DNA from: Siphonodentalium dalli
Taxonomy: Eukaryota > Mollusca > Scaphopoda > Gadilida > Siphonodentaliidae
NCBI GenBank assembly: GCA_032622095.1
Contig: CP136063.1
Span: 270,251,426-270,315,425 of the forward strand
DNA: 64,000 nt
Direction of reading: 5' to 3'
Shown: one piece after another, positions 8,720-52,546 of the stretch
Layout: the number at the start of each line of letters is the position of its first letter
Position numbering within the stretch: position 1 is the stretch's first letter
Position numbers and translations under genes: made by a program
The notes under the pieces: generated by a model
What the model was told of the DNA's origin: nothing
The model's database searches: none
What the model saw: the letters and a program-made list of their open reading frames with translations, nothing else

Positions 8720-10547
8720 GTAGCATTTTTTGCCACTTTCGGGACCAGCCTCCCAAGGTTTCTACAATTTTATATTTATTTATTGAATGTTTTCGAATAC
8801 CGACCCTTTTATTATTTTTGTTCTCATTTACCAACGCCGTCTTCGAAGAATATTAGCTAATACCTGCATACAGAATATAGTCATCCAATGTGTCACATGT
8901 TTTGCATTTATGCCAAGCCTCATAACAATCATGATTTATTATATTTCCATCAACTTTTCGTCAAAATATGATTCATATCCCCACTACCAGAAGACCGAGA
9001 TGTTATCCTACTCTCGGCACTACGTCATGTCGTAAATGTTTGCGTCATTTGATCATTTGGTCATTTGGTATCCGTGCGCGTTATTTTAACATAGATGGCT
9101 GGTGATGATGCAGCTATAAGAACGTATTAGGTCTAAACATGTGTTTCATTGTGGCCTATGTCGTAACAAACTGGTAGACAAAATATAATAAACACAACTA
9201 CGCTACTCAGAACAGTTTATAGCATATATATTACGCAGTGAACTCCGCTGAGACTCGACTCAAAAATTATGTTAGACACTGCATACAGTGGCAATGAATA
9301 GACCTTTAATGAAGTCAGTTTGTGATATATATATCTTTTAGTTTTATTTGTTATTTTTTGTCAGATAATATTCCTTTGAGATATCAGGCAGATATAACAA
9401 AAAAATGTGATATGCACTATAGACAGTGTCAACTGTGTTTTTGGTTACTCCTTATATTTTATTTATATTTTATTTCAATATATACTAGATATGGATATAT
9501 TATTAAAATTCTTCTATCAGAACTGGCATACCTTCTAGGGTCGTGGACACCAGCTTTCTGTATTTCCCTTATACACCCGGTAACATTTATGGTACCTAGT
9601 ATAACTAGGCATAACAGTAATCGCTGTATGTGGACAACCATTGTAATGTGGTGATTGTGTACATAATGTTTTGTTATAATCTGCTATATCGAGAAGTCAC
9701 TGGTGAAATTGTTGCCTGCTGTTCTATGTTTTGGGTTGTGGCAATCACAAATAGTGTGGTGGATTCTATGACTCCATTTGAAGGGTCCAAAGTTAGACTC
9801 AGAAACCACACCAATGTACTACATCACCCTATTATGCCACAGACATTAGTTTTTTTTATCAGTGAACCTGAAGCGAACCTCTTCGGGAGCTGGAAGCAAA
9901 CAAAATAAATCTAATAGCTATTGTTACTTTTTATAATCATCATACATGTAGCTCACATCACTGTTTGGTTTCTTCAAATTACTCAAGGCTTCCCGTTGGC
10001 GTTCAATTTATTTAAATTGATTTCTGATCTCAGAGAGCTTTACAATGACATGAATCGCTTGAATTAAGATGCGCGTGGGTAGTGTTGTAGGGATGTACGA
10101 CGTTTCTGTCTCCGATTCAGCGTTGTTGTGATAAATTGTTTGACATAGTCAGGGAAATTCATCTTTAATGCATATTACAACAATTTATGCTCAATAATAC
10201 TGGACGTCACATATACAGTATAATAATATGCCCCACGTGGACGCGCGGTAGCGGTATATCATTCCATTTTTACATACATGTATAATAACAAATGCCCCCA
10301 CGGAGAGTGCATCCGGTGAGGTGCGGTGTAGGATACGTGGCGGAGTGGCGGTAGTAAGCGTTCGTATCACGCGATGCCTCGCAGCCTCGGCCTGTGGGTA
10401 CGAGCTTAGCTCATGGTCCACTTCAGTTCTACATTTTTCCAAGACGGGTTGATGAGTTGACCCGGCTCAATCAGTCGGCTAGTTACGCCTCTACACGCCT
10501 CTTCAGAGATTAAATTTCTGTTATTTATTGTATCATTTTTGCAATTA
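8720..10547. other. Non-coding stretch, nothing recognised
   Basis: Short frames (for example 9322-9654 and 9630-9908) have no family signature, no convincing splice context and AT-driven composition. I see no element ends or tandem repeats here. Confidence 0.45.
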
Positions 10548-12394: not shown

Positions 12395-12900
12395 TGTTTG
12401 TATTAACTCTTCCATGACTGGAGCTTGCTGTAATTTAGTGAAAACAATGTGCCAATGCAATATCTTATATATGCGAGTCGCCCATAGGGCCCCTCGCATA
12501 TATAAGGGAATGGATTGGCCTAACAAATTTTATAATATTTTTTATAATTGTTAAAAAATGTAAGAAAAAATTCTAAAAAATTGTTAATGAATGTAAGAAA
12601 TAATGATTATAAAAATTGTTAAAAAATCACATGTATATTATAGTATGAGAGTGTTGCAGTGGTGTCACACACAGTTTAACCCTTCCATGATTGAAGCTGC
12701 CTGAAATTTTGCGAAAGCCCTGTGCCAATCGCGTGCCAATCGCATCACATCGCTTATATAGGAGAATGTATTGGCCTAACAATAATGACCTTGATCTTGT
12801 AAGCCAGTCCATACATTTATATTTGCGAGACTCCCCATGGAAGACTCGTATATATAAGAGAATGAATTGGCACATGATCGTTAATGCTACACAAGCGCAG
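12395..12900. mobile_element. Two degenerate copies of the double-hairpin MITE
   Basis: Weakened versions of the hairpin arms (CTTATATATGCGAGTCGCCC, CTCGCATATATAAGGGAATG, CGTATATATAAGAGAATG) and of the end motif TTAACCCTTCCATGA appear twice, with the same AT-rich spacer of GTTAAAAAATGTAAGAAA type. The many mismatches compared with the copies at 19452 and 24309 mark this as an older insertion. Confidence 0.65.
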
Positions 12901-17877: not shown

Positions 17878-18545
17878 TGATAGGTCTCCAATAACGAAAA
17901 TGTGCGCGTTGAAACCAATGTTATGAACACACAACTGTTACATCGATTTGTCAACAAACATTGCTGATCGCGTTGTAAGTTAAAATATTTCAGTTTAAAT
18001 GTGATTTTCAGAATTCTTTTCCATTTTTTGACCTTTTCCAATGTTTATGGTAAACTTTTGATAAACTCTGACTTACAATTATGTTTATATCACTGTAACA
18101 GTTATGTTTATATCACTGTAACAGTTATGTTTATATCACTGTAACAGTTACGTTTATATCACTGTAACAGTTACGTTTATATCACTGTAACAGTTATGTT
18201 TATATCACTGTAACAGTTATGTTTATATCACTGTAACAGTTATGTTTATATCACTGTAACAGTTATGTTTATATCACTGTAACATTTATGTTTATATCAC
18301 TGTAACAGTTATGTTTATATCACTGTAACAGTTATGTTTATATCACTGTAACAGTTATGTTTATATCACTGTAACAGTTATGTTTATATCAATGTAACAG
18401 TTATGTTTATATAAATGTAACAGTTATGTTTATATCACTGTAACAGTTATGTTTATATCACTGTAACAGTTATGTTTATATCACTGTAACAGTTATGTTT
18501 ATATCACAATGGTTTCAATGTGCGAAATCTCGTTATTGGCGAGTT
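17878..18545. mobile_element. Inverted-repeat element enclosing a minisatellite
   Basis: CTCCAATAACGAAAATGTGC...GAAACCAATG on the left is the near inverse of CAATGGTTTCAATGTGCGAA...TCGTTATTGGCGAG on the right. Nearly all of the interior is the 23-bp array listed separately. The arms are about 45 bp. Confidence 0.6.
18077..18507. repeat. 23-bp minisatellite, about 19 copies
   Basis: The unit GTTATGTTTATATCACTGTA+ACA repeats with rare single-base changes (ACGTTT, TCAATG, ATAAATG). Confidence 0.96.
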
Positions 18546-19451
18546 ATAAATAACTACAATAAGAACGAAATATGTTTAATTTTACATGCACTTGTTGGTG
18601 GTAGTTCGTTAAACTATCACCACCAGGGTTCACGCAGTCAGAGGCGAAGTTGGCCAATGGCCATTTTTTTTAGAAAATGGCAAAAAACAATTTCATTTGG
18701 CCAAAGTTTTTTTCACCTCAAAATCTGAAATCTAATTAAAACAAACAAGTTGATTTCGCAACGAGAGCGACATGAGAATCAAATTATAGTATGACCATCT
18801 GCTAATTAATTAGGTCATATAGCTCAAGGAGTAACAAAAGGCACTCATGAAAGTGCACAATCAAACAATGTAATAAAACAGTAATGAGGATTAACACCAA
18901 TGAATCGTTTGTCTGTCATAAGACGGAATGGTAGATGGTGGATAGTCACCCGATAGTGGTATATTGTCATGTAATAGTGGTGGAATTAAAGAAATCTAGA
19001 CACGATATCTGAAGGTATGGACATAATTATATAGAATGTTGGATTTAAATAAAACATAAATATTAATTAATTGTGAGACCAGTAAATGAGGATTTAATTT
19101 GGCCAAATAATTAACTTTTTGGCGCAGCATACCCCTCATGTCACGTTTATGTTGCTTGCTCATCAATGGTAGATATATCTAATTCATGCTAAAATGATAG
19201 TTTGAGTACTATGTATTATCGGGAATGTAGTATGTGTGAACGCATGTAGGGTCCCAGAAATAATGTCCATATTGTCCGGGTACAAGCTACACGCTGTTAT
19301 TGAAATAGCACCCCCAACCGACCAGTTGCAAACATATGGCATACATATACATACATTATACAAATAGAGTAATATGAATTCAAAAGTGATCCAACTCAGT
19401 CAAAGGTTAACTTCTATTCGTGTTGATATGTTTGCGAGTGGCCTGGTCCAT
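18546..19451. other. Non-coding stretch with a dispersed repeat at 19151-19290
   Basis: The segment GCTTGCTCATCAATGGTAGA ... CCAGAAATAATGTCCATATT (19151-19290) has a diverged second copy at 21141-21280. Nothing else was recognised. Confidence 0.45.
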
Positions 19452-19819
19452 TTAACCCTTTACCCAACAAACCGGCCAAAACCGGCCAAATAAAGCTTCA
19501 ACAGCCTAAAATATCAATAGAACCATACAAATATGGATATCATTGGAACCGGCTCATTGACCACATTGTGATGGTTACAGTTATGCCCTGTGCCAATGCA
19601 TTCTCTTATATATGCGAGTCGACCATAGGTCGCCTCGCATATATAAGAGAATGCATTGGCCTAAAAAAAAAAAATATTTTTCTACATTCTTTGACAATTT
19701 TATAATTTTTAATATGTTAAGCCAATGCATTCTCATATATATGCGAGGCGACCTATGGTCGACTCTCATATATAAGAGAATGCATTGGCACAGGGCCGTT
19801 CTGTTGGGTAAAGGGTTAA
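19452..19819 (+). mobile_element. piggyBac-like double-hairpin MITE, copy A1
   Basis: Bounded by TTAA on both sides with ends CCCTTTACCCAACA and the inverse TGTTGGGTAAAGGG. TTAA targets plus CCCTTT-type ends are the hallmarks of piggyBac-mobilised elements. The left side carries ~130 bp of family-specific sequence (AAACCGGCCAAA, CCATACAAATATGGATATCA). Next comes hairpin 1 (GCATTCTCTTATATATGCGA against its inverse), an AT-rich spacer, hairpin 2, and a short 23-bp right side. No coding capacity; it would need a transposase in trans. Confidence 0.85.
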
Positions 19820-20310
19820 GTATAAACAGTAACCATATATATTTACATGGCCCGCCTGTGTTACACAAAATCCTAATTGGCGATTGGTCAACTGTTATGT
19901 ATTTAGTTCACCCGTTCCTTACCCCAATAACACACAGACCGTAACTCGAACACAACGTCACAACTTGTTGACCTAATAACAAAAAAGCGGTCAGCAGAAT
20001 AATTGGGCGTGCTTTTCAAAGTTCAGCCGAATTGCACCTGAAGCCAGTTATTTATATCGAGCACATTTGCTAAGTGCTGGGAAATCTTATACCGAGCTGA
20101 CGTGATGTGCGTCACGGGCTACTCTCAAGTTATCGGCAGATTTTGTGACAATAAATAAGTATAAACTCAACTTTTTTATGGGAATAAATCATCGAAAAGC
20201 TTCGTGGTTCACACAAAGTACCCTAACGACCACAATAACACACACACCAAATATATTAATTAACGACCACAGCGCCGTATCCCACGATAACACACACAAA
20301 CCCAATACAT
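19820..20310. other. Non-coding stretch, nothing recognised
   Basis: Contains loosely repeated CACACA-rich text but no gene or defined element. Confidence 0.4.
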
Positions 20311-21118
20311 TGGCCGCGGACACACGTATCACAGTGGCGATGGCATAGTAGGTGCGACACTTTATTATGGAGGAGTTTGGTGATAATTGGTCGTCTTAAT
20401 TAATATGCCATAGCCAGCCATGTTGCCCGCTGAGTTTCCGCACACTGAGTCGACTGGACCAATTAACCCATTGCGTTTCACCAAGGTTGATATCTACTCA
20501 TTTACGTTTTGCTAAATTGTATTCGCCACGATATATATAATTGCACGATCGATCGTCCAGAATTATGTTTGACCGTGGACTTGTGGCAATTCCTCATTGA
20601 CTCACATATCAGGCACATGGTACGTTTTTATATGATTTAAATGCATGCTTGTTTATCTACTTATATTAATTTCATGAGTATTAAGACAGTTCCCTAATTG
20701 CGTATTAAAACAGTTCCCCAATTGCGTTTTTTTATTTTGCGACGTTTAGTTCTACGCATAAGGTTTGACTCACTTACATTTGCTGATAAATTACACGGGC
20801 GATTTGTTCTTAGTAAGAACAATCATGGCTGTTGACAGAAATGGGTTATTCATTAAGTTATCAAGTGGACTTGTGTGTTAGCATGCAAAATATAACACTG
20901 AGTAAAGATCAACAGCGACAAAACATTCAGGTAGATACATCCTGGAGAGATCGACCGTCGCTAGTAGAGTTTGGTAGACTCATTGTGCGAATTTGCAGAG
21001 GGCGACATGGCTTGCTATGGCATATCAATTATGACGACCAATTGTCACCAAACTCCACCATAATAAATTGTTACACCTACTATGCCATCGCTACTGTGAT
21101 ACGTGTGTCCGCAGCCAT
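20311..21118 (+). mobile_element. MITE family 2 (long terminal inverted repeats), copy 1
   Basis: The left arm starts TGGCCGCGGACACACGTATC and the right arm ends with the inverse GATACGTGTGTCCGCAGCCA. The arms continue for about 150 bp (CGATGGCATAGTAG, TTTGGTGA.AATTGG, ATATGCCATAGC, CATG..GCCC). The interior includes the palindrome CGATCGATCG and TTTGCTGATAAATTACACGG. Other copies are at 27118-27705 and 50819-51494. There is no coding content. Confidence 0.8.
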
Positions 21119-21140
21119 TAATTTCTTAAATCACGTGTAT

Positions 21141-21280
21141 GATGCTTGCTTGTCAATGATATAGAGATCGAATTTATGCTGAAATGATATTTTGATTAGT
21201 ATGTAGTACATATGTTCGGAAAAGTAGTATATTAGTACAGGGGCTCCAGAAATAATGTCCATATTGCCCAGGTACATGCA
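21141..21280 (+). repeat. Dispersed repeat, partner of 19151-19290
   Basis: Shares GATGCTTGCTTGTCAATG..., ATGCTGAAATGATA.TTTGA and CCAGAAATAATGTCCATATT with the earlier copy. It follows directly on the right end of the family 2 MITE. Confidence 0.6.
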
Positions 21281-21571
21281 GGTCCATCTCGCCAGCACAG
21301 CACGTACCACGTTTGGGATTCCGGCGACAACAGGTTGTGCGCGACGAGATAACTTGGCGCAGTTGATCGTACAATCTAAATTGGAACTGCATACTATAGT
21401 TTGAAGAACAAGGGGCACGCGAATGTATGTATATGGCTGCAACACCTATGCATGACTCTATCATCACATTTAATATTATCGTGGTGATTTTCTCATATTT
21501 CTCAGTATTTGTTTCATACGGCCTGTCTCAGATTAAATGACATCTTTAACCCCAACTGACTATATGTGTGA

Positions 21572-21955
21572 ATTACCAAATCTGTGTCGACTGTCAATGA
21601 TAGCGACTTCGACACAAACAAACAAGGAAAAAAACAAAAAAACAAACAAACTTATAACGAAATTTGCCAAAATAACATCTCAGAAAATGGGAAATATGCT
21701 ATTCATAGACAAGCGCAGCCACTACAGTGTCATCACCCCAGTAGTATTGGTAAATACTACTCACCCCCTGATTATGAAAATACCAACTAATCTCGTTACC
21801 TAAAAAAATCGTGAAATCGGGTCTCAGCTCTCGGACAAGGAAGTGTTTACATCAAACACATCTATGACGACAACCTTGCTTTGTCAGCAATTATTCACAA
21901 TTGTTATCCCCAATTTGACCTAGATGTTATTAGAGATGCCCTTTCCTTACATTAG
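21572..21955 (+). pseudogene. Possible relic C-terminal coding exon, two in-frame stops
   Basis: One frame reads protein-like text across about 127 codons broken by two stops (TAA at 21788-21790 and TGA near 21812). The first part is K/N/Q rich and holds YYSPPDYEN; the second part (LGQGSVYIKHIYDDN and onward to a stop at 21953) has an even, non-repetitive composition. Staying in one frame across both stops is the reason for suspicion. No domain is recognised, and a chance frame in AT-rich DNA is a real alternative. Confidence 0.22.
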
Positions 21956-22806
21956 TGAATGTATTGCACACAAAATATAGAAGGAGCAATATTTTGCGCT
22001 AAATGTAATAATTTTTAGAGAAATATTAAGCGCGAGATATCGCAATATTAAGCGCGAAATATTGCAATAATGGTGAGACATTGTCCCTGAACCTTTAGAC
22101 CATGAACATACAGAAAATTGTGTAGAGAGTAATCGACAGAGGAAGCTAGTATACATATATATTTGTATGACATGTATGTTTTATATATGTATGTTATTTA
22201 ATAAACAAATAGTTTAAACAGGCACCATCACAACCAAATGTTTTGCTTCACGTGCATGCATGTGCGTCGCGATGCCAGTCTTCAATCTACAAATGGACCT
22301 TCAGGAACGATCAATATCTGAATAAACTTTGAGGGGAAATATTTGGTCAGGTTTGCATTTGCACAACATAGTACCCATATTCAAAGTTAGCGAATTCGAC
22401 ACTGAGACTGAGTGCCGTGCGAATTTAAAGGGAGAATCCACATCAATTTCAATACATTCCTAGAAAAACGATATATATATTGTATCGATAATATATTAAA
22501 AATAATTAATCTGAGTCGAAGATATCCACAATACGTATTAACAGGCGCTATCTGCAATTACTTAACGGATGTGGATTATGTTACATTTATCACACATTGT
22601 GAAAAACTATATGGCGAAACACCCGCTGACAATATAGAATACAACTAATAAATTTCTGAGACAAGTATGCATATAAGGTAATATTTTATTTGATACAATT
22701 GACTGGAAATTGTTACGAGGATATTTCGATGACGAACGTTTATTCGTTGCATTCCGGTTTTTCTGGCATCCGTAAAATAGTTTTATTCCCGTCGATTCGT
22801 ACTCAA
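21956..22806. other. Non-coding stretch upstream of the peptide gene
   Basis: Includes a short AT/GCG reiteration (ATATTAAGCGCGA twice near 22025-22055). No promoter element can be pinned down with confidence. Confidence 0.35.
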
Positions 22807-23106
22807 TCCCGCTGTACTCACGCAGTAAATCCCGCTGTACTCATGCAGTAAATCCCACTGTACTCATGCAGTAAATCCCGCTGTACTCATGCAGTAAATC
22901 CCACTGTACTCATGCAGTAAATCCCGCTCTACTCATGCAGTCACTCCCGCTGTACTCATGCAGTAAATCCCACTGTACTCATGCAGTAAATCCCGCTGTA
23001 CTCATGCAGTAAATCCCGCTGTACTCATGCAGTAAATCCAGCTGTACTCATGCATTCAATCCCGCTCTACTCATGCAGTCACTCCCGCTGTACTCATGCA
23101 GTAAAG
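22807..23106. repeat. 23-bp minisatellite upstream of the peptide gene, ~13 copies
   Basis: The unit CCCGCTGTACTCATGCAGTA+AAT varies mainly at CCCGC/CCCAC, GTACTC/CTACTC and AGTAAAT/AGTCACT. It ends about 200 bp before the predicted initiator ATG, so it lies in the promoter, the 5' leader or its intron. Confidence 0.93.
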
Positions 23107-23290
23107 TGAAAGTTTTCAGATTTTGGTCCATTAACAGGTTTTATTCCAGAGCGATATCCATTTCCATTGGTACTGACACTGGGAATTCTGGTTCATGTTC
23201 TTGTTGTTACTTCAGGCTAAACAAATTAAATACAAAACATTTGAAAACTCTCAAATCAAAACGCAACGCTGGTCCGAATAACTACGATAA

Positions 23291-23305
23291 TCATTTTTTT
23301 TCCAG
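23291..23305 (+). other. Putative 3' splice site just before the ATG
   Basis: TCATTTTTTTTCCAG is a textbook polypyrimidine tract plus CAG, and the next bases are A-ATG. This suggests an intron in the 5' leader, with the coding exon starting one base before the initiator. Confidence 0.6.
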
Positions 23306-23306
23306 A

Positions 23307-23807
23307 ATGAGTTCAACATTACTGTATATAGCTGTCTTTTTGGCAATAGCGGCTGTTGCAGCAAGCTTCGAAATTATCGGGGACCTTGAACCAGCGGATG
23401 TTGGAAGCAAATTCGTAGAGGAAGAGAAACGGTCGTATCTTTCGTCAGAATGTCGATGTTGTGTGATGACGTATGATGATGTGTGTTGTGGGCGGTGTCT
23501 ATCGCGGCCAAATTCGCCATCCATATTCTACACTGGCAAACGCAGCGGATATGGTGCCCAGTTCACGCGACAAACGAGATTCTCGACATGCAGCTGCTGT
23601 TTTGCGAGTAGGTTTGCCAACGGCTGGTGTTGCGGGATGTGCCGAAGTGCCCAAAAAAAGCGATACGGGAAAAGGTCCACTGCACAGGAGCCGGTATATT
23701 CCTACGAGGATTCAAATGATATCCGAAATGGAGAGGAAGAGAGTTGTCACTGTTGTGTTTTCACGAATTCTGAAGACTGTTGTGAGAAGTGCTACCTCTC
23801 GAAGTGA
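23307..23807 (+). CDS. Secreted precursor with three six-cysteine peptides
   Basis: A 166-residue secreted precursor, probably a neuropeptide or other signalling or Cys-rich peptide precursor; I do not recognise the family. Residues 1-20 form a signal peptide (hydrophobic LLYIAVFLAIAAVAA, small residues before the cut). Three copies of C-x-C-C-x(7-9)-C-C-x2-C follow: C49-C64, C95-C112 and C147-C162, six cysteines each, so three internal disulfides per peptide are likely. Dibasic cleavage sites separate them: KR at 41-42, GKR at 77-79 (predicting a C-terminal amide after T76), KKR at 117-119 and GKR at 121-123. Acidic spacers lie between them, as usual for prohormones. The ATG at 23307 is preferred over an upstream in-frame one (23073) because the signal peptide begins here and a splice acceptor abuts it. 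The whole coding part is in one exon, ending at TGA. A toxin-like or antimicrobial role cannot be excluded. Confidence 0.75.
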   Translation: MSSTLLYIAVFLAIAAVAASFEIIGDLEPADVGSKFVEEEKRSYLSSECRCCVMTYDDVCCGRCLSRPNSPSIFYTGKRSGYGAQFTRQTRFSTCSCCFASRFANGWCCGMCRSAQKKRYGKRSTAQEPVYSYEDSNDIRNGEEESCHCCVFTNSEDCCEKCYLSK

Positions 23808-24308: not shown

Positions 24309-24752
24309 TTAAGTTACCCACAGAACGGCCCTGTGCCAATGCATTCTCTCATATATGCGAGTCGGCCATAGGTCGCCTCGCATATATAAGAGAATGCATT
24401 GGCTTAACACATATTAAAAATGATAAAATTGTCAAAGAATGTAGCAAAATATTATAAAAATTGTTAAAAAATGTAAGGCAAAATTATAAAATTGTTAAAG
24501 AATGTAAGAAAAAATGGTAAAAAGTGTTAGGCCAATGCATTCTCTTATACATGCGAGGCGACCTATGGTCGACTCGCATATATAAGAGAATGCATTGGCA
24601 AAGGGCATAACTGTAACCATCACAATGTGGTCAATGAACCGGTTCCAATGATATCCATATGTGTATGGTTCTATTGAGACAGACGGAAGATATTTTAGGC
24701 TGTTGAAGCTTTATTTGGGCGTTTTTGGCCGTTTTGTTGGGTAAAGGGTTAA
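24309..24752 (-). mobile_element. piggyBac-like double-hairpin MITE, copy A2
   Basis: Same family as 19452-19819 but inverted: the short side is on the left and the long side (GGTTCCAATGATATCCATAT ... GTTGGGTAAAGGG) on the right, flanked by TTAA. The left end has lost the CCCTTT part (TTAA-GTTACCCACAG). Both hairpins are present with a longer AT spacer of GTTAAAAAATGTAAG type. Confidence 0.82.
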
Positions 24753-26284
24753 CTACACACTCCTTATGAAAAACTATTCAAACAGATGTACCCGTCAGTT
24801 TCATGTACATGTGAGATAATCCAAATACGCGAGCCAATTCCATACAATAAACAGTGGGTTACTACCACATTCGGGTTACTAATTCTTCTGAGTGCTAAGG
24901 CTTGGACTCCGCCTTGTGGGACAATATGTATATGTCGAATAACTTAGAGTGGCCTGAATCCACCGTGAGATAGTATAGTGAGATAGTATAATTGGATGGT
25001 TCGCAATAAAATTGCTCTGCAATTGGCGAGAATTCGCAAGTAGTGCATTTCTTGCTGTGTCTTATAATTTCGTATAATATATCTTATTAACATCAATATT
25101 ATGATCTATGAATTTAACTACATCCCCTATACCACTCACATACATACATATAGACATTCCCGTAACATATCTGGTTAACAAGTTCGGTCTAGAGATGGTT
25201 GTGAAAGCTCCTTATATCATGCACATATGAATGGACTATGCTGACGCTTGTTCAAGTTATCGCGCTAACCGCATCAAATGTTAAACAATAGACACAATAA
25301 GAGCCATTACTCCGGGTACCCACCACCCCTATTCGTGTAAAATAAAATAGTTTTTCCCCGCCCAGGTTTTGGGACCAACCGTCAAACTCGCATTTCAATT
25401 GACTTTACCAAGCTTTTGCAGACTGTTCATATACTGTCCCCTCACTCCTATTTAATCTATACCCACTATCCATTCTCATCCTGCCTAGATACAGTTATAA
25501 ATCAGCAGCAGGAAGTTCAAAGTTCAACATGACTAAAAAATAAAATCACAGCATGCACATGTCCATTATCCTACCAAATTCAGCGTGATTGAATATTAAC
25601 TTCTCTCATTTTTTGGTATGCACACATGCAGCATACACAGTACCTTTCTAATATAATCATGAATATACGAATATACCTGAATATACCAGAATATAACATA
25701 AATAAATGTGATGATGGTTTGCAGAGATGATTGTCCTAGCCAAAGATTATTGTTTTTGAATGTTGTTGTTCACCAGGTCCAGCACATCTACTGAATGGGC
25801 TGAATGTCTCAATCGTGATAAATGTGCCCGAGCGACGTAATGAAACATAAACAACCACGCATATATGCTAATAGGGAATGCTCCGACAAAAATATATTAC
25901 GGCGAAATGGGTACAATAAATAAAGTTTGTTACACAGCCAATAACCAACTTGCTGCTAATTAAAAAATAAATGACGTTGCTCACCTCTGAGTTTCCCATG
26001 CTACGAAGTCGGGGTCGATATATCGGTCTGCCGCGATCAACCGGGAATCATTAATATCATCCTGTCGCTGTAAATGTGTTCGGAAATACGTTGACGCTAA
26101 AATTGCAAAAAAATGCAAATGTTTTAACATCGTTCACTAAAACTCGACTCGAATCGACTTTAGTGGACTCGGTTAATAAATTTCGATTAGAATTGCGACC
26201 CATTAGAGATCCTTGATAACCTAAATTTCTTGATAACTTACGGCGACAGAAATGACAGCAAGATCGAGAGATATGGCCACACCT
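24753..26284. other. Non-coding stretch, nothing recognised
   Basis: About 1.5 kb without a supportable gene. A few AATATAC(C) reiterations occur at 25660-25700. Confidence 0.45.
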
Positions 26285-26470: not shown

Positions 26471-27117
26471 ATACATGCAAAGTATTCAATATTTTCTGCG
26501 ATTTAAATGGGTATTTCGACATTGCATCATAATTCATCCGAATAGGACTGCCCTGTATACAGTATAATGCTAACCAGCGCAAATGCACCTAGATAAATCA
26601 ACAAGACTAGTGCTAACATTTCCCAAGATATTAACAACTTAATGTTATGTACAGCCTAAATATATCATGAACACGTGCTATTGCGTAGACATTGGACACT
26701 ACCCTATCAAAAACTATAAATATTGATGACGCAACTTGATCTATCGATAATTTGAAATCTGAATGACAGCGTTGTTTCAACTGTATGTGTCTTACTTCTA
26801 CTTTCTAATTATGGTGGTTGTCCTGTGAAATGACGGATTAGATTAGAAGAAATAACTCTTGTTTCGAATAATTAAAAAATCTCATCTCACACAACAATGC
26901 AATTACAAAATAGCTTATTGTATTGGGTCTATGAGAGGAGTCTCCATTTTTATCATATTGTTGAGTTAAATTATTAATTGCATAAAATAACATCATACCC
27001 CTTATATTATAATGAAGAATAAAGCAGCCACAAATATTCCAGCCCAATGAAAACAAAATGTTGATATACAGTGTCGTCCACTCAAGCAGGGGGCAAACAA
27101 CTGGAATTAGGACACAA
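26471..27117. other. Non-coding stretch, nothing recognised
   Basis: No supportable gene, tandem repeat or element end. Confidence 0.4.
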
Positions 27118-27705
27118 TGGCTGCGGACACACGTACCACAGTAGCGATGGCATAGTAGGTGTGACAATGTATTATGGTGGAGTTTGGCGACAACTGGGCG
27201 TCATAATTAATATGCCATATCCAGCCATGTTGCCCGCTGAGTTTATGCACAATGAGTCGACTGACCAATTAACCCATTTCCACCAATGTTGATCTCTACT
27301 CATTACGTTTTGCTAAATTGAATTCGCCACGATATATATAATTGCACGATCGATCGTCCAGAATTGTGTTTGACCGTGGTCTGGTGGCAATTCCTCATTC
27401 ACTCACATATAATGCATGTGGTACGTTTTGTTTATATGATCTCAATGCATGTTTATCTACTTATTTTAATTTCATGAGTATTAAGACAGTTCCCCAATTG
27501 CGTTTTTTATTTTGCGACGTTTAGTTCTACGCATAAGGTTTGACTCACTTACATTTGCTGATAAATTACACGGGCGATTTGTTCTTAGTAAGAACAATCA
27601 TGGCTGTTGACAGAAATGGGTTATTCATTAAGTTATCAAGTGGACTTGTGTGTTAGCATGCAAAATATTACACGGAGTAAAGATCAACAGCGACAAAAAC
27701 ATTAT
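27118..27705 (+). mobile_element. MITE family 2, copy 2 (right end missing)
   Basis: Begins TGGCTGCGGACACACGTACC and follows copy 1 (20311 on) closely through CGATCGATCG and TTTGCTGATAAATTACACGG to the CAACAGCGACAAAAACATT point. There it departs, and no inverted right arm follows. It is a truncated or solo-arm copy. Confidence 0.75.
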
Positions 27706-28081: not shown

Positions 28082-29754
28082 TATGTCCCAATAGAACTAC
28101 TCATCAATATGTCCCAAGAGAACTACTCATCAATATGTCCCAATAGAACTACTCATCAATATTTCCCAAGAGAACTACTCATCAATATGTCTCACGAGGA
28201 CTACTCATCAATATGTCCCAAGAGAACTACTCATCAATATGTCCATAGAGAACTACTCATCAATATGTCACAAGAGAACTACTCATCAATATGTCACAAG
28301 AGAACTACTCATCAATATGTCCCTAGAGAACTACTCATCAATAAGTCCCAAGAGAAATAGTCATCAATGTGTCCCAAGAGAACTACTCATCAATATGTCC
28401 CAAGAGAACTACTCACCAATGTGTCCCAAGAGAACTACTCATCAATATGTCCCACGAGAACTACTCATCAATATGTCTCAAGAGGACTACTCATCAATAT
28501 GTCACAAGAGAACTACTCATCGATATGTCTCAAGAGAACTACTCACCAATGTGTCCCAAGAGAACTACTCATCAATATGTCCCACGCGAACTACTCATCA
28601 ATATGTCTCAAGAGGACTACTCATCAATGTGTCACAAGAGAACTACTCATCGATATGTCTCAAGAGAACTACTCATCAATATGTCTCAAGAGAACTACTC
28701 ATCAATATGTCACAAGAGAACTACTCATCAATATGTCACAAGAGAACTACTCATCAATATGTCACAAGAGAACTACTCATCAATATGTCACAAGAGAACT
28801 ACTCATCAATATGTCACAAGAGAACTACTCATCGATATGTATCAAGAGAACTACTCATCAATATGTCACAAGAGAACTACTCATCAATATGTCACAAGAG
28901 AACTACTCATCAATATGTCACAAGAGAACTACTCATCGATATGTCTCAAGAGAACTACTCATCAATATGTCACAAGAGAACTACTCATCAATATGTCACA
29001 AGAGAACTACTCATCAATATGTCACAAGAGAACTACTCATCAATATGTCTCAAGAGGACTACTCATCAATATGTCTCAAGAGAAATAGTCATCAATGTGT
29101 CTCAAGAGAACTACTCATCAATATGTCTCAAGAGAAATAGTCATCAATGTGTCTCAAGAGAACTACTCATCAATATGTCCCAAGAGAACTACTCATCAAT
29201 ATGTCCCTAGAGAACTACTCATCAATATGTCCCAAGAGAACTACTCATCAATGTGTCCCAAGAGAACTACTCATCAATATGTCCCAAGAGAACTAGTCAT
29301 CAATGTGTCCCAAGAGAACTACTCATCAATATGTCCCAAGAGAACTACTCATCAATGGGACCCAAGAGAACTACTCATCAATATGTCCCAAGAGAACTAC
29401 TCATCAATATGTCTCAAGAGGACTACTCATCAATATGTCACAAGAGAACTACTCATCAATATGTCACAAGAGAACTACTCATCAATATGTCCCAAGAGAA
29501 CTACTCATCAATATGTCCCTAGAGAACTACTCATCAATATATCCCAAGAGAACTACTCATCAATGTGTCCCAAGAGAACTACTCATCAATGTGTCCCAAG
29601 AGAACTACTCATCAATATGTCCCAAGAGAACTACTCATCAATGTGTCCCAAGAGAACTACTCATCAATATGTCCCAAGAGAACTACTCATCAATGTGCAC
29701 CAAGAGGACTACTCATCAATATGTCTAAAGAGAACTACTCATCAATATGTCTCA

Positions 29755-32700
29755 AGAGAACTACTCATTAATATGTCTCAAGAGAACTACTCATCAATAT
29801 GTCTAAAGAGAACTACTCATCAATATGTCCCAAGAGAACTACTCATCAATATGTCTACAGAGAACTACTCATCAATATGTCTAAAGAGAACTAGTCATCA
29901 ATATGTCACAAGAGGACTACTCATCAATATGTCTCAATAGAACTACTCATCAATATGTCCCAAGGGAACTACTCATCAATATGTCCCAAGAGAACTACTC
30001 ATCAATATGTCCCAAGAGAACTACTCATCAATATGGCACAAGAGAACTACTCATTAATATGTCTAAAGAGAACTACTCATCAATATGTCTCAAGAGAACT
30101 ACTCATTAATATGTCTCAAGAGAACTACTCATCAATATGTCCCAAGGGAACTACTCATCAATATGTCCCAAGAGAACTACTCATCAATATGTCCCAAGAG
30201 GACTACTCACCAGTATGTCACAAGAGAACTACTCATCAATATGTCCCAAGGGAACTACTCATCAATATGTCCCAAGAGGACTACTCACCAGTATGTCACA
30301 AGCGAACTACTCATCAATATGTCTCAAGAGAACTACTCATCAATATGTCCCAAGAGAACTACTCATCAATATGTCTACAGAGAACTACTCATCAATATGT
30401 CTAAAGAGAACTACTCATCAATATGTCACAAGAGGACTACTCATCAATATGTCTCAATAGAACTACTCATCAATATGTCCCAAGGGAACTACTCATCAAT
30501 ATGTCCCAAGAGAACTACTCATCAATATGTCCCAAGAGAACTACTCATCAATATGTCACAAGAGAACTACTCATTAATATGTCTAAAGAGAACTACTCAT
30601 CAATATGTCTCAAGAGAACTACTCATTAATATGTCTCAAGAGAACTACTCATCAATATGTCCCGAGGGAACTACTCATCAATATGTCCCAAGAGAACTAC
30701 TCATCAATATGTCCCAAGAGGACTACTCACCAGTATGTCACAAGAGAACTACTCATCAATATGTCCCAAGGGAACTACTCATCAATATGTCACAAGAGAA
30801 CTACTCATCAATATGTCACAAGAGAACTACTCATCAATATGTCCCAAGAGAACTACTCATCAATATGTCCCTAGAGAACTACTCATCAATATGTCCCAAG
30901 AGAACTACTCATCAATGTGTCCCAATAGAACTACTCATCAATGTGTCCCAAGAGAACTACTCATCAATATGTCCCAAGAGAACTACTCATCAATGTGTCC
31001 CAAGAGAACTACTCATCAATATGTCACAAGAGAACTACTCATCAATATGTCCCAAGAGAACTACTCATCAATGTGTCCCAAGAGAACTACTCATCAATAT
31101 GTCCCAAGAGAACTACTCATCAATATGTCCCAAGAGAACTACTCATCAATATGTCCCAAGAGAACTACTCATCAATATGTCTCAAGAGGACTACTCATCA
31201 ATATGTCCCAAGAGGACTACTCATCAATATGTCTCAAGAGGACTACTCATCAATATGTCTCAAGAGAACTACTCATTAATATGTCTAAAGAGAACTACTC
31301 ATTAATATGTCTAAAGAGAACTACTCATCAATATGTCTCAAGAGGACTACTCATCAATGTGTCTCAATAGAACTACTCATCAATATGTCCCAAGGGAACT
31401 ACTCATCAATATGTCTCAAGAGGACTACTCATCAATATGTCCCAAGAGGACTCCTCATCAATATGTCTCAAGAGGACTACTCATCAATATGTCTCAAGAG
31501 AACTACTCATCAATATGTCTCAAGAGAACTACTCATCAATATGTCTCAAGAGAACTACTCATCAATATGTCTAAAGAGGACTACTCATCAATATGTCTCA
31601 AGAGGACTACTCATTAATATGTCTAAAGAGAACTACTCATTAATATGTCTAAAGAGAACTACTCATCAATATGTCCCAAGAGAACTACTCATCAATATGT
31701 CCCAAGAGAACTACTCATCAATATGTCCCAAGAGAACTACTCATCAATATGTCTCAAGAGAACTACTCATCAATATGTCTCAAGAGGACTACTCATCAAT
31801 ATGTCACAAGAGGACTACTCATCAATATGTCTCAAGAGAACTACTCATCAATATGTCTCAAGAGAACTACTCATCAATATGTCTCAAGAGAACTACTCAT
31901 CAATATGTCTCAAGAGAACTACTCATCAATATGTCTCAAGAGAACTACTCATTAATATGTCTAAAGAGAACTACTCATTAATATGTCTAAAGAGAACTAC
32001 TCATCAATATGTCTCAAGAGGACTACTCATCAATGTGTCTCAATAGAACTACTCATCAATATGTCCCAAGGGAACTACTCATCAATATGTCCCAAGAGAA
32101 CTACTCATCAATATGTCACAAGATAACTACTCATTAATATGTCTAAAGAGAACTACTCATCAATATGTCTAAAGAGAACTACTCATCAATATGTCTAAAG
32201 AGAACTACTCATCAATATGTCTAAAGAGAACTACTCATTAATATGTCTAAAGAGAACTACTCATCAATATGTCTAAAGAGAACTACTCATCAATGTGTCC
32301 CAAGAGAACTACTCATCAATATGTCCCAAGAGAACTACTCATCAATATGTCCCAAGAGAACTACTCATCAATGTGTCCCAAGAGAACTACTCATCAATAT
32401 GTCTCAAGAGAACTACTCATCAATATGTCACAAGAGGACTACTCATCAATGTGTCCCAAGAGAACTACTCATCAATATGTCCCAAGAGGACTACTCATTA
32501 ATATGTCTCAAGAGAACTACTCATCAATATGTCTCAAGAGGACTACTCATCAATATGTCTCAAGAGGACTACTCATCAATATGTCTCAAGAGGACTACTC
32601 ATCAATATGTCTAAAGAGAACTACTCATCAATGTGTCCCAAGAGAACTACTCATCAATATGTCCCAAGAGAACTACTCATCAATATGTCCCAAGAGAACT

Positions 32701-35700
32701 ACTCATCAATATGTCTAAAGAGAACTACTCATCAATGTGTCCCAAGAGAACTACTCATCAATATGTCTAAAGAGAACTACTCATCAATGTGTCCCAAGAG
32801 AACTACTCATCAATATGTCCCAAGAGAACTACTCATCAATATGTCCCAAGAGAACTACTCATCAATATGTCTCAAGAGAACTACTCATCAATGTGTCCCA
32901 AGAGAACTACTCATCAATATGTCTAAAGAGAACTACTCATCAATGTGTCCCAAGAGAACTACTCATCAATATGTCTAAAGAGAACTACTCATCAATGTGT
33001 CCCAAGAGAACTACTCATCAATATGTCCCAAGAGAACTACTCATCAATGTGTCCCAAGAGAACTACTCATCAATATGTCTCAAGAGAACTACTCATCAAT
33101 ATGTCACAAGAGGACTACTCATCAATGTGTCCCAAGAGAACTACTCATCAATATGTCCCAAGAGGACTACTCATTAATATGTCTCAAGAGAACTACTCAT
33201 CAATATGTCTCAAGAGGACTACTCATCAGTATGTCTCAAGAGGACTACTCATCAATATGTCTCAAGAGGACTACTCATCAATATGTCCCAAGAGAACTAC
33301 TCATCAATATGTCTCAAGAGGACTACTCATCAATATGTCCCAAGAGAACTACTCATCAATATGTCCCAAGAGGACTACTCATCAATATGTCACAAGAGGA
33401 CTACTCATCAATATGTCTCAAGAGGACTACTCATCAATATGTCTCAAGAGGACTACTCATCAGTATGTCTCAAGAGGACTACTCATCAATATGTCTCAAG
33501 AGGACTACTCATCAATATGTCCCAAGAGAACTACTCATCAATATGTCTCAAGAGGACTACTCATCAATATGTCCCAAGAGAACTACTCATCAATATTTCC
33601 CAAGAGGACTACTCATTAATATGTCTAAAGAGAACTACTCATTAATATGTCTCAAGAGGACTACTCATCAATATGTCTCAAGAGAACTACTCATTAATAT
33701 GTCTCAAGAGGACTACTCATCAATATGTCTCAAGAGAACTACTCATCAATATGTCACAAGAGGACTACTCATCAATATGTCTCAAGAGGACTACTCATCA
33801 ATATGTCCCATGAGAACTACTCATCAATATGTCTCAAGAGGACTACTCATCAATATGTCCCAAGAGAACTACTCATCAATATGTCCCAAGAGGACTACTC
33901 ATCAATATGTCTCAAGAGGACTACTCATCAGTATGTCTCAAGAGGACTACTCATCAATATGTCTCAAGAGGACTACTCATCAATATGTCCCAAGAGAACT
34001 ACTCATCAATATGTCTCAAGAGGACTACTCATCAATATGTCCCAAGAGAACTAGTCATCAATATGTCCCAAGAGGACTACTCATCAATATGTCACAAGAG
34101 GACTACTCATCAATATGTCTCAAGAGGACTACTCATCAATATGTCCCAAGAGGACTCCTCATCAATATGTCTCAAGAGGACTACTCATCAATATGTCCCA
34201 AGAGGACTACTCATCAATATGTCCCAAGAGAACTACTCATCAATATGTCCCAAGAGGACTACTCATCAATATGTCCCAAGAGAACTACTCATCAATATGT
34301 CCCAAGAGGACTACTCATCAATATGTCACAAGAGGACTACTCATCAATATGTCTCAAGAGGACTACTCATCAATATGTCTCAAGAGGACTACTCATCAAT
34401 ATGTCCCAAGAGAACTACTCATCAATATGTCCCAAGAGGACTACTCATCAATATGTCACAAGAGGACTACTCATCAATATGTCTCAAGAGGACTACTCAT
34501 CAATATGTCTCAAGAGGACTACTCATCAATATGTCCCAAGAGAACTACTCATCAATATATCTCAAGAGGACTACTCATCAATATGTCTCAAGAGGACTAC
34601 TCATCAGTATGTCTCAAGAGGACTACTCATCAATATGTCTCAAGAGGACTACTCATCAATATGTCCCAAGAGAACTACTCATCAATATGTCTCAAGAGGA
34701 CTACTCATCAATATGTCCCAAGACAACTACTCATCAATATGTCCCAAGAGGACTACTCATCAATATGTCACAAGAGGACTACTCATCAATATGTCTCAAG
34801 AGGACTACTCATCAATATGTCCCAAGAGAACTACTCATCAATATGTCCCAAGAGAACTACTCATCAATATGTCCCAAGAGGACTACTCATCAATATGTCC
34901 CAAGAGGACTACTCATCAATATGTCTCAAGAGGACTACTCATCAATATGTCCCAAGAGGACTACTCATCAATATGTCTCAAGAGGACTACTCATCAATAT
35001 GTCTCAAGAGGACTACTCATCAATATGTCTCAAGAGGACTACTCATCAATATGTCTCAAGAGGACTACTCATCAATATGTCCCAAGAGGACTACTCATCA
35101 ATATGTCTCAAGAGGACTACTCATCAATATGTCCCAAGAGAACTACTCATCAATATGTCCCAAGAGAACTACTCATCAATATGTCCCAAGAGAACTACTC
35201 ATCAATATGTCCCAAGAGGACTACTCACCAATATGTCTCAAGAGGACTACTCATCAATATGTCCCAAGAGAACTACTCATCAATATGTCCCAAGAGGACT
35301 ACTCATCAATATGTCCGAAGAGAACTACTCATCAATATGTCCCAAGAGAACTACTCATTAATATGTCTCAAGAGAACTACTCATCAATATGTCTCAAGAG
35401 GACTACTCATCAATATGTCTCAAGAGGACTACTCATCAATGTGTCCCAAGAGAACTACTCATCAATATGTCTCAAGAGAACTACTCATCAATATGTCTAA
35501 AGAGAACTACTCATCAATATGTCTCAATAGAACTACTCATCAATATGTCCCAAGGGAACTACTCATCAATATGTCCCAAGAGAACTACTCATCAATATGT
35601 CACAAGAGAACTACTCATTAATATGTCTAAAGCGAACTACTCATCAATATGTCTAAAGAGAACTACTCATCAATATGTCTAAAGAGAACTACTCATCAAT

Positions 35701-36696
35701 ATGTCTAAAGAGAACTACTCATTAATATGTCTAAAGAGAACTACTCATCAATATGTCTAAAGAGAACTACTCATCAATATGTCTCAAGAGAACTACTCAT
35801 TAATATGTCTCAAGAGAACTACTCATCAATATGTCACAAGAGAACTACTCATCAATATGTCCCAAGAGAACTACTCATCAATATGTCACAAGAGAACTAC
35901 TCATCAATATGTCCCAAGAGAACTACTCATCAATATGTCCCAAGAGAACTACTCATCAATATGTCCCAAGAGAACTACTCATCAATATGTCTAAAGAGAA
36001 CTACTCATTAATATGTCTCAAGAGAACTACTCATTAATATGTCTCAAGAGAACTACTCATTAATATGTCCCAAGAGAACTACTCATCAATATGTCCCAAG
36101 AGAACTACTCATCAATATGTCCCAAGAGAACTACTCATCAATATGTCTAAAGAGAACTACTCATCAATATGTCTCAAGAGAACTACTCATTAATATGTCT
36201 CAAGAGAACTACTCATCAATATGTCTAAAGAGAACTACTCATCAATATGTTACAAGGGAACTACTCATCAATATGTCCCAAGAGAACTACTCATCAATAT
36301 GTCCCAAGAGAACTACTCATCAATATGTCTAAAGAGAACTACTTATCAATATGTCACCAGGGAACTACTCATCAATATGTCCCAAGAGAACTACTCATCA
36401 ATATGTCTCAAGAGAACTACTCATCAATATGTCTCAAGAGAACTACTCATCAATATGTCCCAAGAGAACTACTCATCAATATGTCCCAAGAGAACTACTC
36501 ATCAATATGTCCCAAGAGAACTACTCATCAATATGTCTCAAGAGAACTACTCATTAATATGTCTATAGAGAACTACTCATCAATATGTCCCTAGATAACT
36601 ACTCATCAATATGTCCCTAGATAACTACTCATCAATATGTCTCAAGAGAACTACTCATCAATATGTCACAAGAGAACTACTCATCAATATGTCCCA
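29755..36696 (+). repeat. Higher-order duplication, copy 1 (6,942 bp)
   Basis: The variant order from about 29755 to 36696 is repeated base for base at +6,942 (267 x 26 bp), with only scattered single-base differences (for example CTATAGAG against CTAAAGAG near 36564/43506). Identity is lost just upstream of 29750. A shorter internal duplication at +520 bp (20 units) links 29.9 kb and 30.4 kb. Confidence 0.9.
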
Positions 36697-39600
36697 AGAG
36701 AACTACTCATTAATATGTCTCAAGAGAACTACTCATCAATATGTCTAAAGAGAACTACTCATCAATATGTCCCAAGAGAACTACTCATCAATATGTCTAC
36801 AGAGAACTACTCATCAATATGTCTAAAGAGAACTAGTCATCAATATGTCACAAGAGGACTACTCATCAATATGTCTCAATAGAACTACTCATCAATATGT
36901 CCCAAGGGAACTACTCATCAATATGTCCCAAGAGAACTACTCATCAATATGTCCCAAGAGAACTACTCATCAATATGTCACAAGAGAACTACTCATTAAT
37001 ATGTCTAAAGAGAACTACTCATCAATATGTCTCAAGAGAACTACTCATTAATATGTCTCAAGAGAACTACTCATCAATATGTCCCAAGGGAACTACTCAT
37101 CAATATGTCCCAAGAGAACTACTCATCAATATGTCCCAAGAGGACTACTCACCAGTATGTCACAAGAGAACTACTCATCAATATGTCCCAAGGGAACTAC
37201 TCATCAATATGTCCCAAGAGGACTACTCACCAGTATGTCACAAGCGAACTACTCATCAATATGTCTCAAGAGAACTACTCATCAATATGTCCCAAGAGAA
37301 CTACTCATCAATATGTCTACAGAGAACTACTCATCAATATGTCTAAAGAGAACTAGTCATCAATATGTCACAAGAGGACTACTCATCAATATGTCTCAAT
37401 AGAACTACTCATCAATATGTCCCAAGGGAACTACTCATCAATATGTCCCAAGAGAACTACTCATCAATATGTCCCAAGAGAACTACTCATCAATATGTCA
37501 CAAGAGAACTACTCATTAATATGTCTAAAGAGAACTACTCATCAATATGTCTCAAGAGAACTACTCATTAATATGTCTCAAGAGAACTACTCATCAATAT
37601 GTCCCGAGGGAACTACTCATCAATATGTCCCAAGAGAACTACTCATCAATATGTCCCAAGAGGACTACTCACCAGTATGTCACAAGAGAACTACTCATCA
37701 ATATGTCCCAAGGGAACTACTCATCAATATGTCACAAGAGAACTACTCATCAATATGTCACAAGAGAACTACTCATCAATATGTCCCAAGAGAACTACTC
37801 ATCAATATGTCCCTAGAGAACTACTCATCAATATGTCCCAAGAGAACTACTCATCAATGTGTCCCAATAGAACTACTCATCAATGTGTCCCAAGAGAACT
37901 ACTCATCAATATGTCCCAAGAGAACTACTCATCAATGTGTCCCAAGAGAACTACTCATCAATATGTCACAAGAGAACTACTCATCAATATGTCCCAAGAG
38001 AACTACTCATCAATGTGTCCCAAGAGAACTACTCATCAATATGTCCCAAGAGAACTACTCATCAATATGTCCCAAGAGAACTACTCATCAATATGTCCCA
38101 AGAGAACTACTCATCAATATGTCTCAAGAGGACTACTCATCAATATGTCCCAAGAGGACTACTCATCAATATGTCTCAAGAGGACTACTCATCAATATGT
38201 CTCAAGAGAACTACTCATTAATATGTCTAAAGAGAACTACTCATTAATATGTCTAAAGAGAACTACTCATCAATATGTCTCAAGAGGACTACTCATCAAT
38301 GTGTCTCAATAGAACTACTCATCAATATGTCCCAAGGGAACTACTCATCAATATGTCTCAAGAGGACTACTCATCAATATGTCCCAAGAGGACTCCTCAT
38401 CAATATGTCTCAAGAGGACTACTCATCAATATGTCTCAAGAGAACTACTCATCAATATGTCTCAAGAGAACTACTCATCAATATGTCTCAAGAGAACTAC
38501 TCATCAATATGTCTAAAGAGGACTACTCATCAATATGTCTCAAGAGGACTACTCATTAATATGTCTAAAGAGAACTACTCATTGATATGTCTAAAGAGAA
38601 CTACTCATCAATATGTCCCAAGAGAACTACTCATCAATATGTCCCAAGAGAACTACTCATCAATATTTCCCAAGAGAACTACTCATCAATATGTCTCAAG
38701 AGAACTACTCATCAATATGTCTCAAGAGGACTACTCATCAATATGTCACAAGAGGACTACTCATCAATATGTCTCAAGAGAACTACTCATCAATATGTCT
38801 CAAGAGAACTACTCATCAATATGTCTCAAGAGAACTACTCATCAATATGTCTCAAGAGAACTACTCATCAATATGTCTCAAGAGAACTACTCATTAATAT
38901 GTCTAAAGAGAACTACTCATTAATATGTCTAAAGAGAACTACTCATCAATATGTCTCAAGAGGACTACTCATCAATGTGTCTCAATAGAACTACTCATCA
39001 ATATGTCCCAAGGGAACTACTCATCAATATGTCACAAGAGAACTACTCATCAATATGTCACAAGATAACTACTCATTAATATGTCTAAAGAGAACTACTC
39101 ATCAATATGTCTAAAGAGAACTACTCATCAATATGTCTAAAGAGAACTACTCATCAATATGTCTAAAGAGAACTACTCATTAATATGTCTAAAGAGAACT
39201 ACTCATCAATATGTCTAAAGAGAACTACTCATCAATGTGTCCCAAGAGAACTACTCATCAATATGTCCCAAGAGAACTACTCATCAATATGTCCCAAGAG
39301 AACTACTCATCAATGTGTCCCAAGAGAACTACTCATCAATATGTCTCAAGAGAACTACTCATCAATATGTCACAAGAGGACTACTCATCAATGTGTCCCA
39401 AGAGAACTACTCATCAATATGTCCCAAGAGGACTACTCATTAATATGTCTCAAGAGAACTACTCATCAATATGTCTCAAGAGGACTACTCATCAATATGT
39501 CTCAAGAGGACTACTCATCAATATGTCTCAAGAGGACTACTCATCAATATGTCTAAAGAGAACTACTCATCAATGTGTCCCAAGAGAACTACTCATCAAT

Positions 39601-42600: not shown

Positions 42601-43638
42601 AGAACTACTCATCAATATGTCTAAAGAGAACTACTCATCAATATGTCTAAAGAGAACTACTCATTAATATGTCTAAAGAGAACTACTCATCAATATGTCT
42701 AAAGAGAACTACTCATCAATATGTCTCAAGAGAACTACTCATTAATATGTCTCAAGAGAACTACTCATCAATATGTCACAAGAGAACTACTCATCAATAT
42801 GTCCCAAGAGAACTACTCATCAATATGTCACAAGAGAACTACTCATCAATATGTCCCAAGAGAACTACTCATCAATATGTCCCAAGAGAACTACTCATCA
42901 ATATGTCCCAAGAGAACTACTCATCAATATGTCTAAAGAGAACTACTCATTAATATGTCTCAAGAGAACTACTCATTAATATGTCTCAAGAGAACTACTC
43001 ATTAATATGTCCCAAGAGAACTACTCATCAATATGTCCCAAGAGAACTACTCATCAATATGTCCCAAGAGAACTACTCATCAATATGTCTAAAGAGAACT
43101 ACTCATCAATATGTCTCAAGAGAACTACTCATTAATATGTCTCAAGAGAACTACTCATCAATATGTCTAAAGAGAACTACTCATCAATATGTTACAAGGG
43201 AACTACTCATCAATATGTCCCAAGAGAACTACTCATCAATATGTCCCAAGAGAACTACTCATCAATATGTCTAAAGAGAACTACTTATCAATATGTCACC
43301 AGGGAACTACTCATCAATATGTCCCAAGAGAACTACTCATCAATATGTCTCAAGAGAACTACTCATCAATATGTCTCAAGAGAACTACTCATCAATATGT
43401 CCCAAGAGAACTACTCATCAATATGTCCCAAGAGAACTACTCATCAATATGTCCCAAGAGAACTACTCATCAATATGTCTCAAGAGAACTACTCATTAAT
43501 ATGTCTAAAGAGAACTACTCATCAATATGTCCCTAGATAACTACTCATCAATATGTCCCTAGATAACTACTCATCAATATGTCTCAAGAGAACTACTCAT
43601 CAATATGTCACAAGAGAACTACTCATCAATATGTCCCA
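36697..43638 (+). repeat. Higher-order duplication, copy 2 (6,942 bp)
   Basis: Directly follows copy 1. The corresponding frames have identical lengths (874, 510, 461, 276 and 237 residues in both) at constant offset 6,942. Identity fades after about 43640, where extra CCCTAGATAAC-type units appear. Confidence 0.9.
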
Positions 43639-52244: not shown

Positions 52245-52546
52245 TTAACCCTTTACCCAACAAACCGGCCAAAAACGGCCAAATAAAGCTGCAACAGCCT
52301 AAATTATCTTGGGTCTGTCTCAATAAAACCATACAAATATGGATATCATTGGAACCGGCTCATTGACCACATTGTGATGGTTACAGTTATGCCCTGTGCC
52401 AATGCATTCTCTTATATATGCGAGTCGACCATAGGTCGCCTCGCATATATAAGAGAATGCATTGGCCTAATCTTTTTTTAACACTTTTTACCATTTTTTC
52501 TTACATTCTTTAACAATTTTTAATGTGTTAAGGCAATGCATTCTCT

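What the first reader, a model, noticed from the sequence alone, without database searches (positions are those of the whole stretch)
23307..23807. Unrecognised secreted precursor with three CxCC...CCxxC peptides
Seen directly: signal peptide, three repeats of a compact six-cysteine frame (C-x-C-C-x7-9-C-C-x2-C), dibasic sites between them, and a GKR that would give an amidated C-terminus. Known: this organisation is standard for neuropeptide and peptide-hormone precursors. Inference: a small peptide family with an unusual double CC framework, possibly undescribed.
Basis: partly seen in the sequence, partly recalled or inferred. Interest (0 to 1): 0.8.

Follow-up and report, generated by a model that had tools for sequence, protein, structure and literature searches.

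The report
Secreted precursor of three cysteine-rich peptides
A small animal gene appears to encode a secreted protein that is cut into three short peptides sharing one six-cysteine pattern; the layout is that of a hormone or neuropeptide precursor, but no relative was found and its function is untested.

Summary
Window 23307-23807 (+) encodes 166 aa: a signal-like start, KR sites between segments, and three units C-x-CC-x(7/9/7)-CC-x2-C that hold all 18 cysteines. The pattern occurs nowhere else in six frames of 64 kb and is far beyond chance. There are two GKR signals, not one; the second follows KKRY and is ambiguous. DNA similarity between units is mostly lost while the cysteines persist, suggesting selection on the protein. 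An acceptor-like sequence ends one base before the ATG; no 5' exon was found. No homologue turned up, but these searches are weak for short, fast-evolving animal peptides. The frame differs from the two six-cysteine neuropeptides I could compare. Best reading: a prohormone releasing three disulfide-rich ligands with net charges 0, +7 and -7; antimicrobial or toxin-like roles are not excluded. The precursor type is known; this peptide family is unrecognised here. Expression, species and relatives stay untested; the own-genome search did not complete (11 tries).

The parts
23300..23305 (+). acceptor-like ttccag closing a T-rich tract (8 T, CCAG), one base before the ATG: possible 5'-UTR intron or trans-splice acceptor
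   Evidence: 13 of 18 preceding bases are pyrimidines and the previous AG is 90 bp upstream; but 87 of 3,466 AGs in the window score as well, so weak on its own
23307..23807 (+). ORF of 166 aa plus stop TGA: the precursor
23307..23366 (+). signal-like segment MSSTLLYIAVFLAIAAVAAS (cut near residue 19/20 or 20/21, inferred)
   Evidence: hydrophobic core up to KD 3.0; 1 of 54 ATG-ORFs; helix 3-21 at pLDDT about 75 in an otherwise low-confidence model
23367..23432 (+). acidic spacer FEIIGDLEPADVGSKFVEEE (net -6) followed by KR (residues 41-42)
23433..23534 (+). peptide 1, 34 aa, net charge 0, would be amidated (next residues GKR)
23451..23498 (+). cysteine unit 1 CRCCVMTYDDVCCGRC
23535..23543 (+). 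GKR amidation and cleavage site 1
23544..23666 (+). peptide 2, 41 aa, net +7 (37 aa, net +4, if cut at the internal KKR)
23589..23642 (+). cysteine unit 2 CSCCFASRFANGWCCGMC
23667..23675 (+). GKR site 2 (preceded by KKRY)
23676..23804 (+). peptide 3, 43 aa, net -7, no amidation signal, ends YLSK
23745..23792 (+). cysteine unit 3 CHCCVFTNSEDCCEKC

Best explanation
A prohormone-type gene. The protein enters the secretory pathway by its signal peptide (sequence shown, cleavage inferred). Convertases cut after KR and GKR and basic residues are trimmed; the glycine after peptide 1, and perhaps peptide 2, is turned into a C-terminal amide (sites shown, processing inferred). Each peptide folds around disulfides of one shared C-CC-CC-C frame (frame shown, pairing unknown) and is released as an extracellular signal, most likely acting on cell-surface receptors (inferred). 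The same scaffold with different loops and charges (0, +7, -7) suggests three related but non-identical ligands, not three copies of one.
For: Signal-like start; three units with all 18 cysteines in register; shuffle controls; KR/GKR sites between the units, each peptide beginning with S after KR; acidic spacer; cysteine codons differ synonymously (13 TGT, 5 TGC) while DNA similarity of unit 2 to units 1 and 3 is at shuffle level (116 and 164 of 300 shuffles as good; units 1 and 3: 0 of 300), so the frame outlived the DNA. Six-cysteine precursors with amide or acidic spacer are described as neuropeptides, several only as predictions (PMC4772807 and PMC6586643, passages).
Against: No homologue anywhere searched, hence no conservation between species shown. 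No transcript data. No 5' exon located: none of the donor strings tried occurs in 18001-23300. The nearest AATAAA is at 24846, over 1 kb downstream, with weaker variants before it. Structure predictions are low confidence and disagree: hairpins in the full precursor at mean pLDDT 42, a helix in peptide 1 at mean 60. Strong charge differences are unusual for copies of one ligand. Amidation of peptide 2 is ambiguous.
Confidence: 0.5

Rival explanations
1. Antimicrobial peptide precursor: the cationic, cysteine-braced, possibly amidated peptide 2 is the effector, and acidic segments neutralise it during storage.
For: Peptide 2 is +7 and flanked by a precursor with a -6 spacer and a -7 peptide 3. 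Tachyplesin precursors also carry signal peptide, mature peptide and Gly-Lys-Arg (PMC7011531, passages).
Against: Peptides 1 and 3 keep the same six-cysteine frame yet are neutral and strongly acidic, odd if they are only neutralisers. No Pfam family matched.
Confidence: 0.2
2. Venom, mucus or other gland toxin-like precursor yielding several disulfide-rich peptides.
For: CC-CC-containing frames occur in conopeptides (framework XI, passages of PMC4278219); C-terminal amides in conopeptides are recalled, not from a call. Varied loops on a fixed scaffold fit.
Against: Three peptides per precursor with KR between them is uncommon in the conopeptides I know (recalled). A complete C-CC-CC-C frame was not seen in the passages of 3 conotoxin papers opened of 18 listed; there the string was part of longer frames.
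Confidence: 0.15
3. Secreted cysteine-rich protein that stays uncut, for example a structural or matrix protein; the KR sites are incidental.
For: No processing data; cysteine-rich repeats also occur in matrix proteins (general knowledge).
Against: KR/GKR fall between the units and none falls inside any of the three cysteine cores.
Confidence: 0.08
4. Not a working gene: relic or chance ORF in repeat-rich DNA.
For: Neighbourhood is dense in dispersed and tandem repeats; no 5' exon found, no homologue; ORF length alone not remarkable.
Against: Chance excluded for the pattern; frame intact; cysteines kept despite synonymous change; the ORF overlaps none of the repeats listed (matches of >=60 bp).
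Confidence: 0.07

Closest known systems
Trissin (arthropod six-cysteine neuropeptide)
   Same: Secreted short peptide with six cysteines
   Different: Cysteine gaps 2,3,3,7,0 in the Portunus sequence (PMC8449533, passages) against 1,0,7-9,0,2 here; that precursor is described with one mature peptide
Ambulacrarian orexin-type peptides
   Same: Six cysteines and C-terminal amide in a signal-peptide precursor
   Different: AjOX1 gaps 0,5,5,1,6 (PMC6586643, passages); one such peptide per precursor as described
Echinoderm NP11- and NP15-type precursors
   Same: Spacer (acidic in several), KR, then a six-cysteine peptide (PMC4772807, PMC6586643, passages)
   Different: One peptide of 45-57 aa; sequences not visible to me, so the frames were not compared
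Molluscan insulin-like A chain
   Same: Begins C-x-C-C
   Different: Continues x3-C-x8-C (PMC5996578, passages) and goes with a B chain; no CC-x2-C
Oyster CCCGS and GSWN precursors; Platynereis CCAa, PCNa, QDNa
   Same: Cysteine-containing candidate prohormones, some amidated (PMC8398477, PMC3890597, passages)
   Different: CCCGS has 8 cysteines in 42 aa; the other sequences are in figures or supplements that I could not see, so a match cannot be excluded
Tachyplesin-type antimicrobial precursors
   Same: Signal peptide, cationic peptide, GKR (PMC7011531, passages)
   Different: 17-18 aa, one mature peptide per precursor; different cysteine frame (four cysteines, recalled)

Membership tests
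Neuropeptide/peptide-hormone precursor (as a kind) | N-terminal signal peptide | tested here: met
   (heuristic, no SignalP)
Neuropeptide/peptide-hormone precursor (as a kind) | Dibasic sites bounding repeated peptides | tested here: met
Neuropeptide/peptide-hormone precursor (as a kind) | Amidation signal | tested here: met
   GKR twice, second ambiguous
Neuropeptide/peptide-hormone precursor (as a kind) | Expression in neurons or endocrine cells; a receptor | not testable with these tools
   no transcript or assay data
Trissin | Cysteine spacing | tested here: not met
   one published sequence
Ambulacrarian orexin | Cysteine spacing | tested here: not met
   one published sequence
Insulin-like | A chain CxCCx3Cx8C or CCx3Cx8C, plus B chain | tested here: not met
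   sequence held against the patterns quoted; no Pfam match
Granulin (considered from memory) | Match to a Pfam profile | tested here: not met
   no Pfam family listed with the limit set at E<=10 (the filter drops most matches above about 0.1)
Conotoxins | Known cysteine framework | tested here: inconclusive
   not among the frameworks in passages of three papers; 15 of 18 listed papers not opened
Conotoxins | Gene-superfamily signal sequence | not tested
   no library at hand
Tachyplesin-type AMP | Mature cationic peptide of 17-18 aa followed by GKR | tested here: not met
   peptide 2 is cationic and precedes GKR, but has 37-41 aa and six cysteines, and its two sister peptides are not cationic

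The most novel reading that the evidence does not exclude
An undescribed family of disulfide-rich signalling peptides with a C-CC-CC-C frame, in which one precursor delivers three ligands of opposite charge on one scaffold, possibly for different receptors or for pairing with each other.
Probability: 0.3. Interest if true: 0.6.

Novelty: new member of a known kind. Interest (0 to 1): 0.4.

Why it matters
Cysteine-framed hormones are easily missed because little but the cysteines stays conserved. A six-cysteine scaffold with free loops would add a ligand family to match with orphan receptors. If it is instead one more lineage-specific peptide, it is a useful but ordinary annotation.

Tried and rejected
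Own-genome search for paralogues: 11 identical requests, none answered.

Protein database: 63 candidates, 0 at E<=1; residues 43-166, no candidate sharing three words. with residues 1-900 of the nearby LINE ORF2 listed 97 proteins at E<=1e-10; the named ones include Mytilus edulis, M. coruscus, Plutella xylostella and Oratosquilla oratoria, so the collection does hold animal proteins, but there was no near-identical copy (38% at most among matches covering nearly all of the query, 41% on partial ones). The host species is therefore probably not in it, and the nulls are weak.

Viral-contig scan: 22 stretches matched a pattern, none confirmed.

PDB profile search: one hit, TIM13 at E 0.22, aligned only over the C-terminal CCxxC part; taken as chance.

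AlphaFold: low confidence and mutually inconsistent, so no fold search was run and no disulfide pairing is claimed.

A TATA-like plus exon-like stretch near 20530-20620, which I first took for a 5' exon, lies inside a dispersed element with inverted ends (20307-21119), so it was dropped.

Upstream in-frame SCSCCYF at 23196: no DNA similarity to the units (scores reached by 127 to 162 of 300 shuffles); left unexplained, not counted as a fourth unit.

A longer reading from ATG 23073 was rejected: its start lies in a 23-bp tandem array and it would bury the signal peptide.

Full report
What is there. The 501-bp ORF at 23307-23807 (+) encodes MSSTLLYIAVFLAIAAVAAS followed by an acidic spacer, KR, and three peptides separated by GKR sites. 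Each peptide holds one unit C-x-C-C-x(7,9,7)-C-C-x2-C; the three units are the only matches in six frames of 64 kb, and the protein's 18 cysteines are all in them. CxCC alone occurs 7 times in the window, 4 of them in this frame, one of these (23196) upstream of the ATG.

Chance. With residue composition kept, 0 of 200,000 shuffles gave three units, 1 gave two and 169 gave one; 20,000 dinucleotide shuffles gave no unit in any frame. The length of the ORF is not itself remarkable (187 open segments as long, over six frames of the same 20,000 shuffles). A simple signal-peptide rule of mine picks this ATG alone among 54 ATG-ORFs of at least 100 aa outside the two largest tandem arrays.

Selection. 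Over 15 core codons that include the six cysteines by construction, unit pairs 1-2, 1-3 and 2-3 share 8, 8 and 6 residues; within these positions units 2 and 3 share only the cysteines. Third codon positions agree in 7, 8 and 8 of 15; 5 of 18 cysteine codons are TGC and 13 TGT. At DNA level units 1 and 3 align better than 300 of 300 base shuffles; the other two pairs do not stand out (116 and 164 of 300 shuffles as good). I read this as old duplications in which the cysteine frame was held by selection; that is inference from one sequence.

Processing. KR at residues 41-42 and GKR at 77-79 and 121-123 lie between the units; a further KKR (117-119) lies in the tail of peptide 2. Peptide 1 would end ...SIFYT-amide. 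Peptide 2 ends ...SAQKKRYGKR, so convertases may cut at KKR and lose the amide. Peptide 3 ends ...YLSK. Net side-chain charges are 0, +7 (or +4) and -7, with a -6 spacer.

Gene structure. The ATG follows an acceptor-like ttttttttccag by one base, with the previous AG 90 bp upstream; comparable tracts occur at 87 of 3,466 AGs in the window, and 6 of the 77 YAG sites among them are likewise followed by an ATG, so this is suggestive only. None of the donor strings tried was found in 18001-23300. The 5' end remains unknown.

Surroundings. The gene stands between two oppositely oriented copies of a palindromic MITE-like element (19452-19823 and 24314-24753), which has further copies in the window; upstream are a 23-bp tandem array (22805-23105) and an element with inverted ends (20307-21119). 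The ORF overlaps none of the repeat matches listed. A LINE with open ORF2 lies at 54574-58095; its named relatives include Mytilus proteins at 26 and 30% identity and, lower in the list, two arthropod proteins at 26 and 27% over part of the query. This is compatible with a mollusc-like or other spiralian host but does not show it.

Relatives. None found: protein collection; Pfam; PDB; one chance-level hit; viral contigs. The protein search needs shared 5-residue words, which peptides that keep little but cysteines would not share, and the own-genome search did not complete. So absence of relatives here says little about spiralians at large.

Literature. Ten searches and passages, not whole texts, of 13 papers (in some only 12 of the places found were shown). 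No passage that I saw described a CxCC..CCxxC peptide; many sequences are in figures or supplements that I could not see. The two six-cysteine neuropeptides whose sequences were printed in those passages, a trissin and an orexin-type peptide, have other spacings. The string C-CC-CC-C is held by 18 papers; in the passages of the three opened it is part of longer conotoxin frames.

Judgement. That this is a real secreted precursor with processed repeats: about 0.85 (inference, the sum of the hormone, antimicrobial and toxin-like readings). That it is a hormone or neuropeptide: 0.5. An antimicrobial role is the main rival because peptide 2 is a cationic, cysteine-rich, possibly amidated peptide. 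The kind of gene is well known, and candidate cysteine-rich prohormones special to one lineage are reported for oyster and Platynereis. The exact frame is unrecognised here, which is worth a transcriptome search but does not yet make a new family.

Noticed in passing
window 28082-44410: 16.3-kb satellite, 26-bp unit TATGTCTCAAGAGAACTACTCATCAA in about 628 copies, strongly strand-skewed (GC skew about -0.3), with a long internal duplication: several ORFs recur 6,942 bp further on.
   Followed up: no
window 52536-58095: LINE-like retrotransposon: ORF1-like 472 aa and open ORF2 of 1,173 codons with endonuclease and reverse transcriptase domains; 38% at most to relatives that cover nearly all of the query.
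   Followed up: partly
window 12448-12627, 19452-19823, 24314-24753, 46714, 47519, 49053-49444, 50245, 52245-52558: Family of palindromic MITE-like elements with the motif CCAATGCATTCTCTTATATATGCGAG; two inverted copies flank the peptide gene.
   Followed up: partly
window 20307-21119, 27114-27703, 51080-51493: Dispersed element; the first copy has about 144-bp inverted ends.
   Followed up: no
window 23196-23207: In-frame CSCC (SCSCCYF) about 110 bp upstream of the ATG in a frame open for 98 codons before it; no DNA similarity to the units. Could be a relic unit or chance.
   Followed up: partly
window 7074-8721: 27-bp tandem array open in several frames for hundreds of codons, as expected of a unit length divisible by three.
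   Followed up: no
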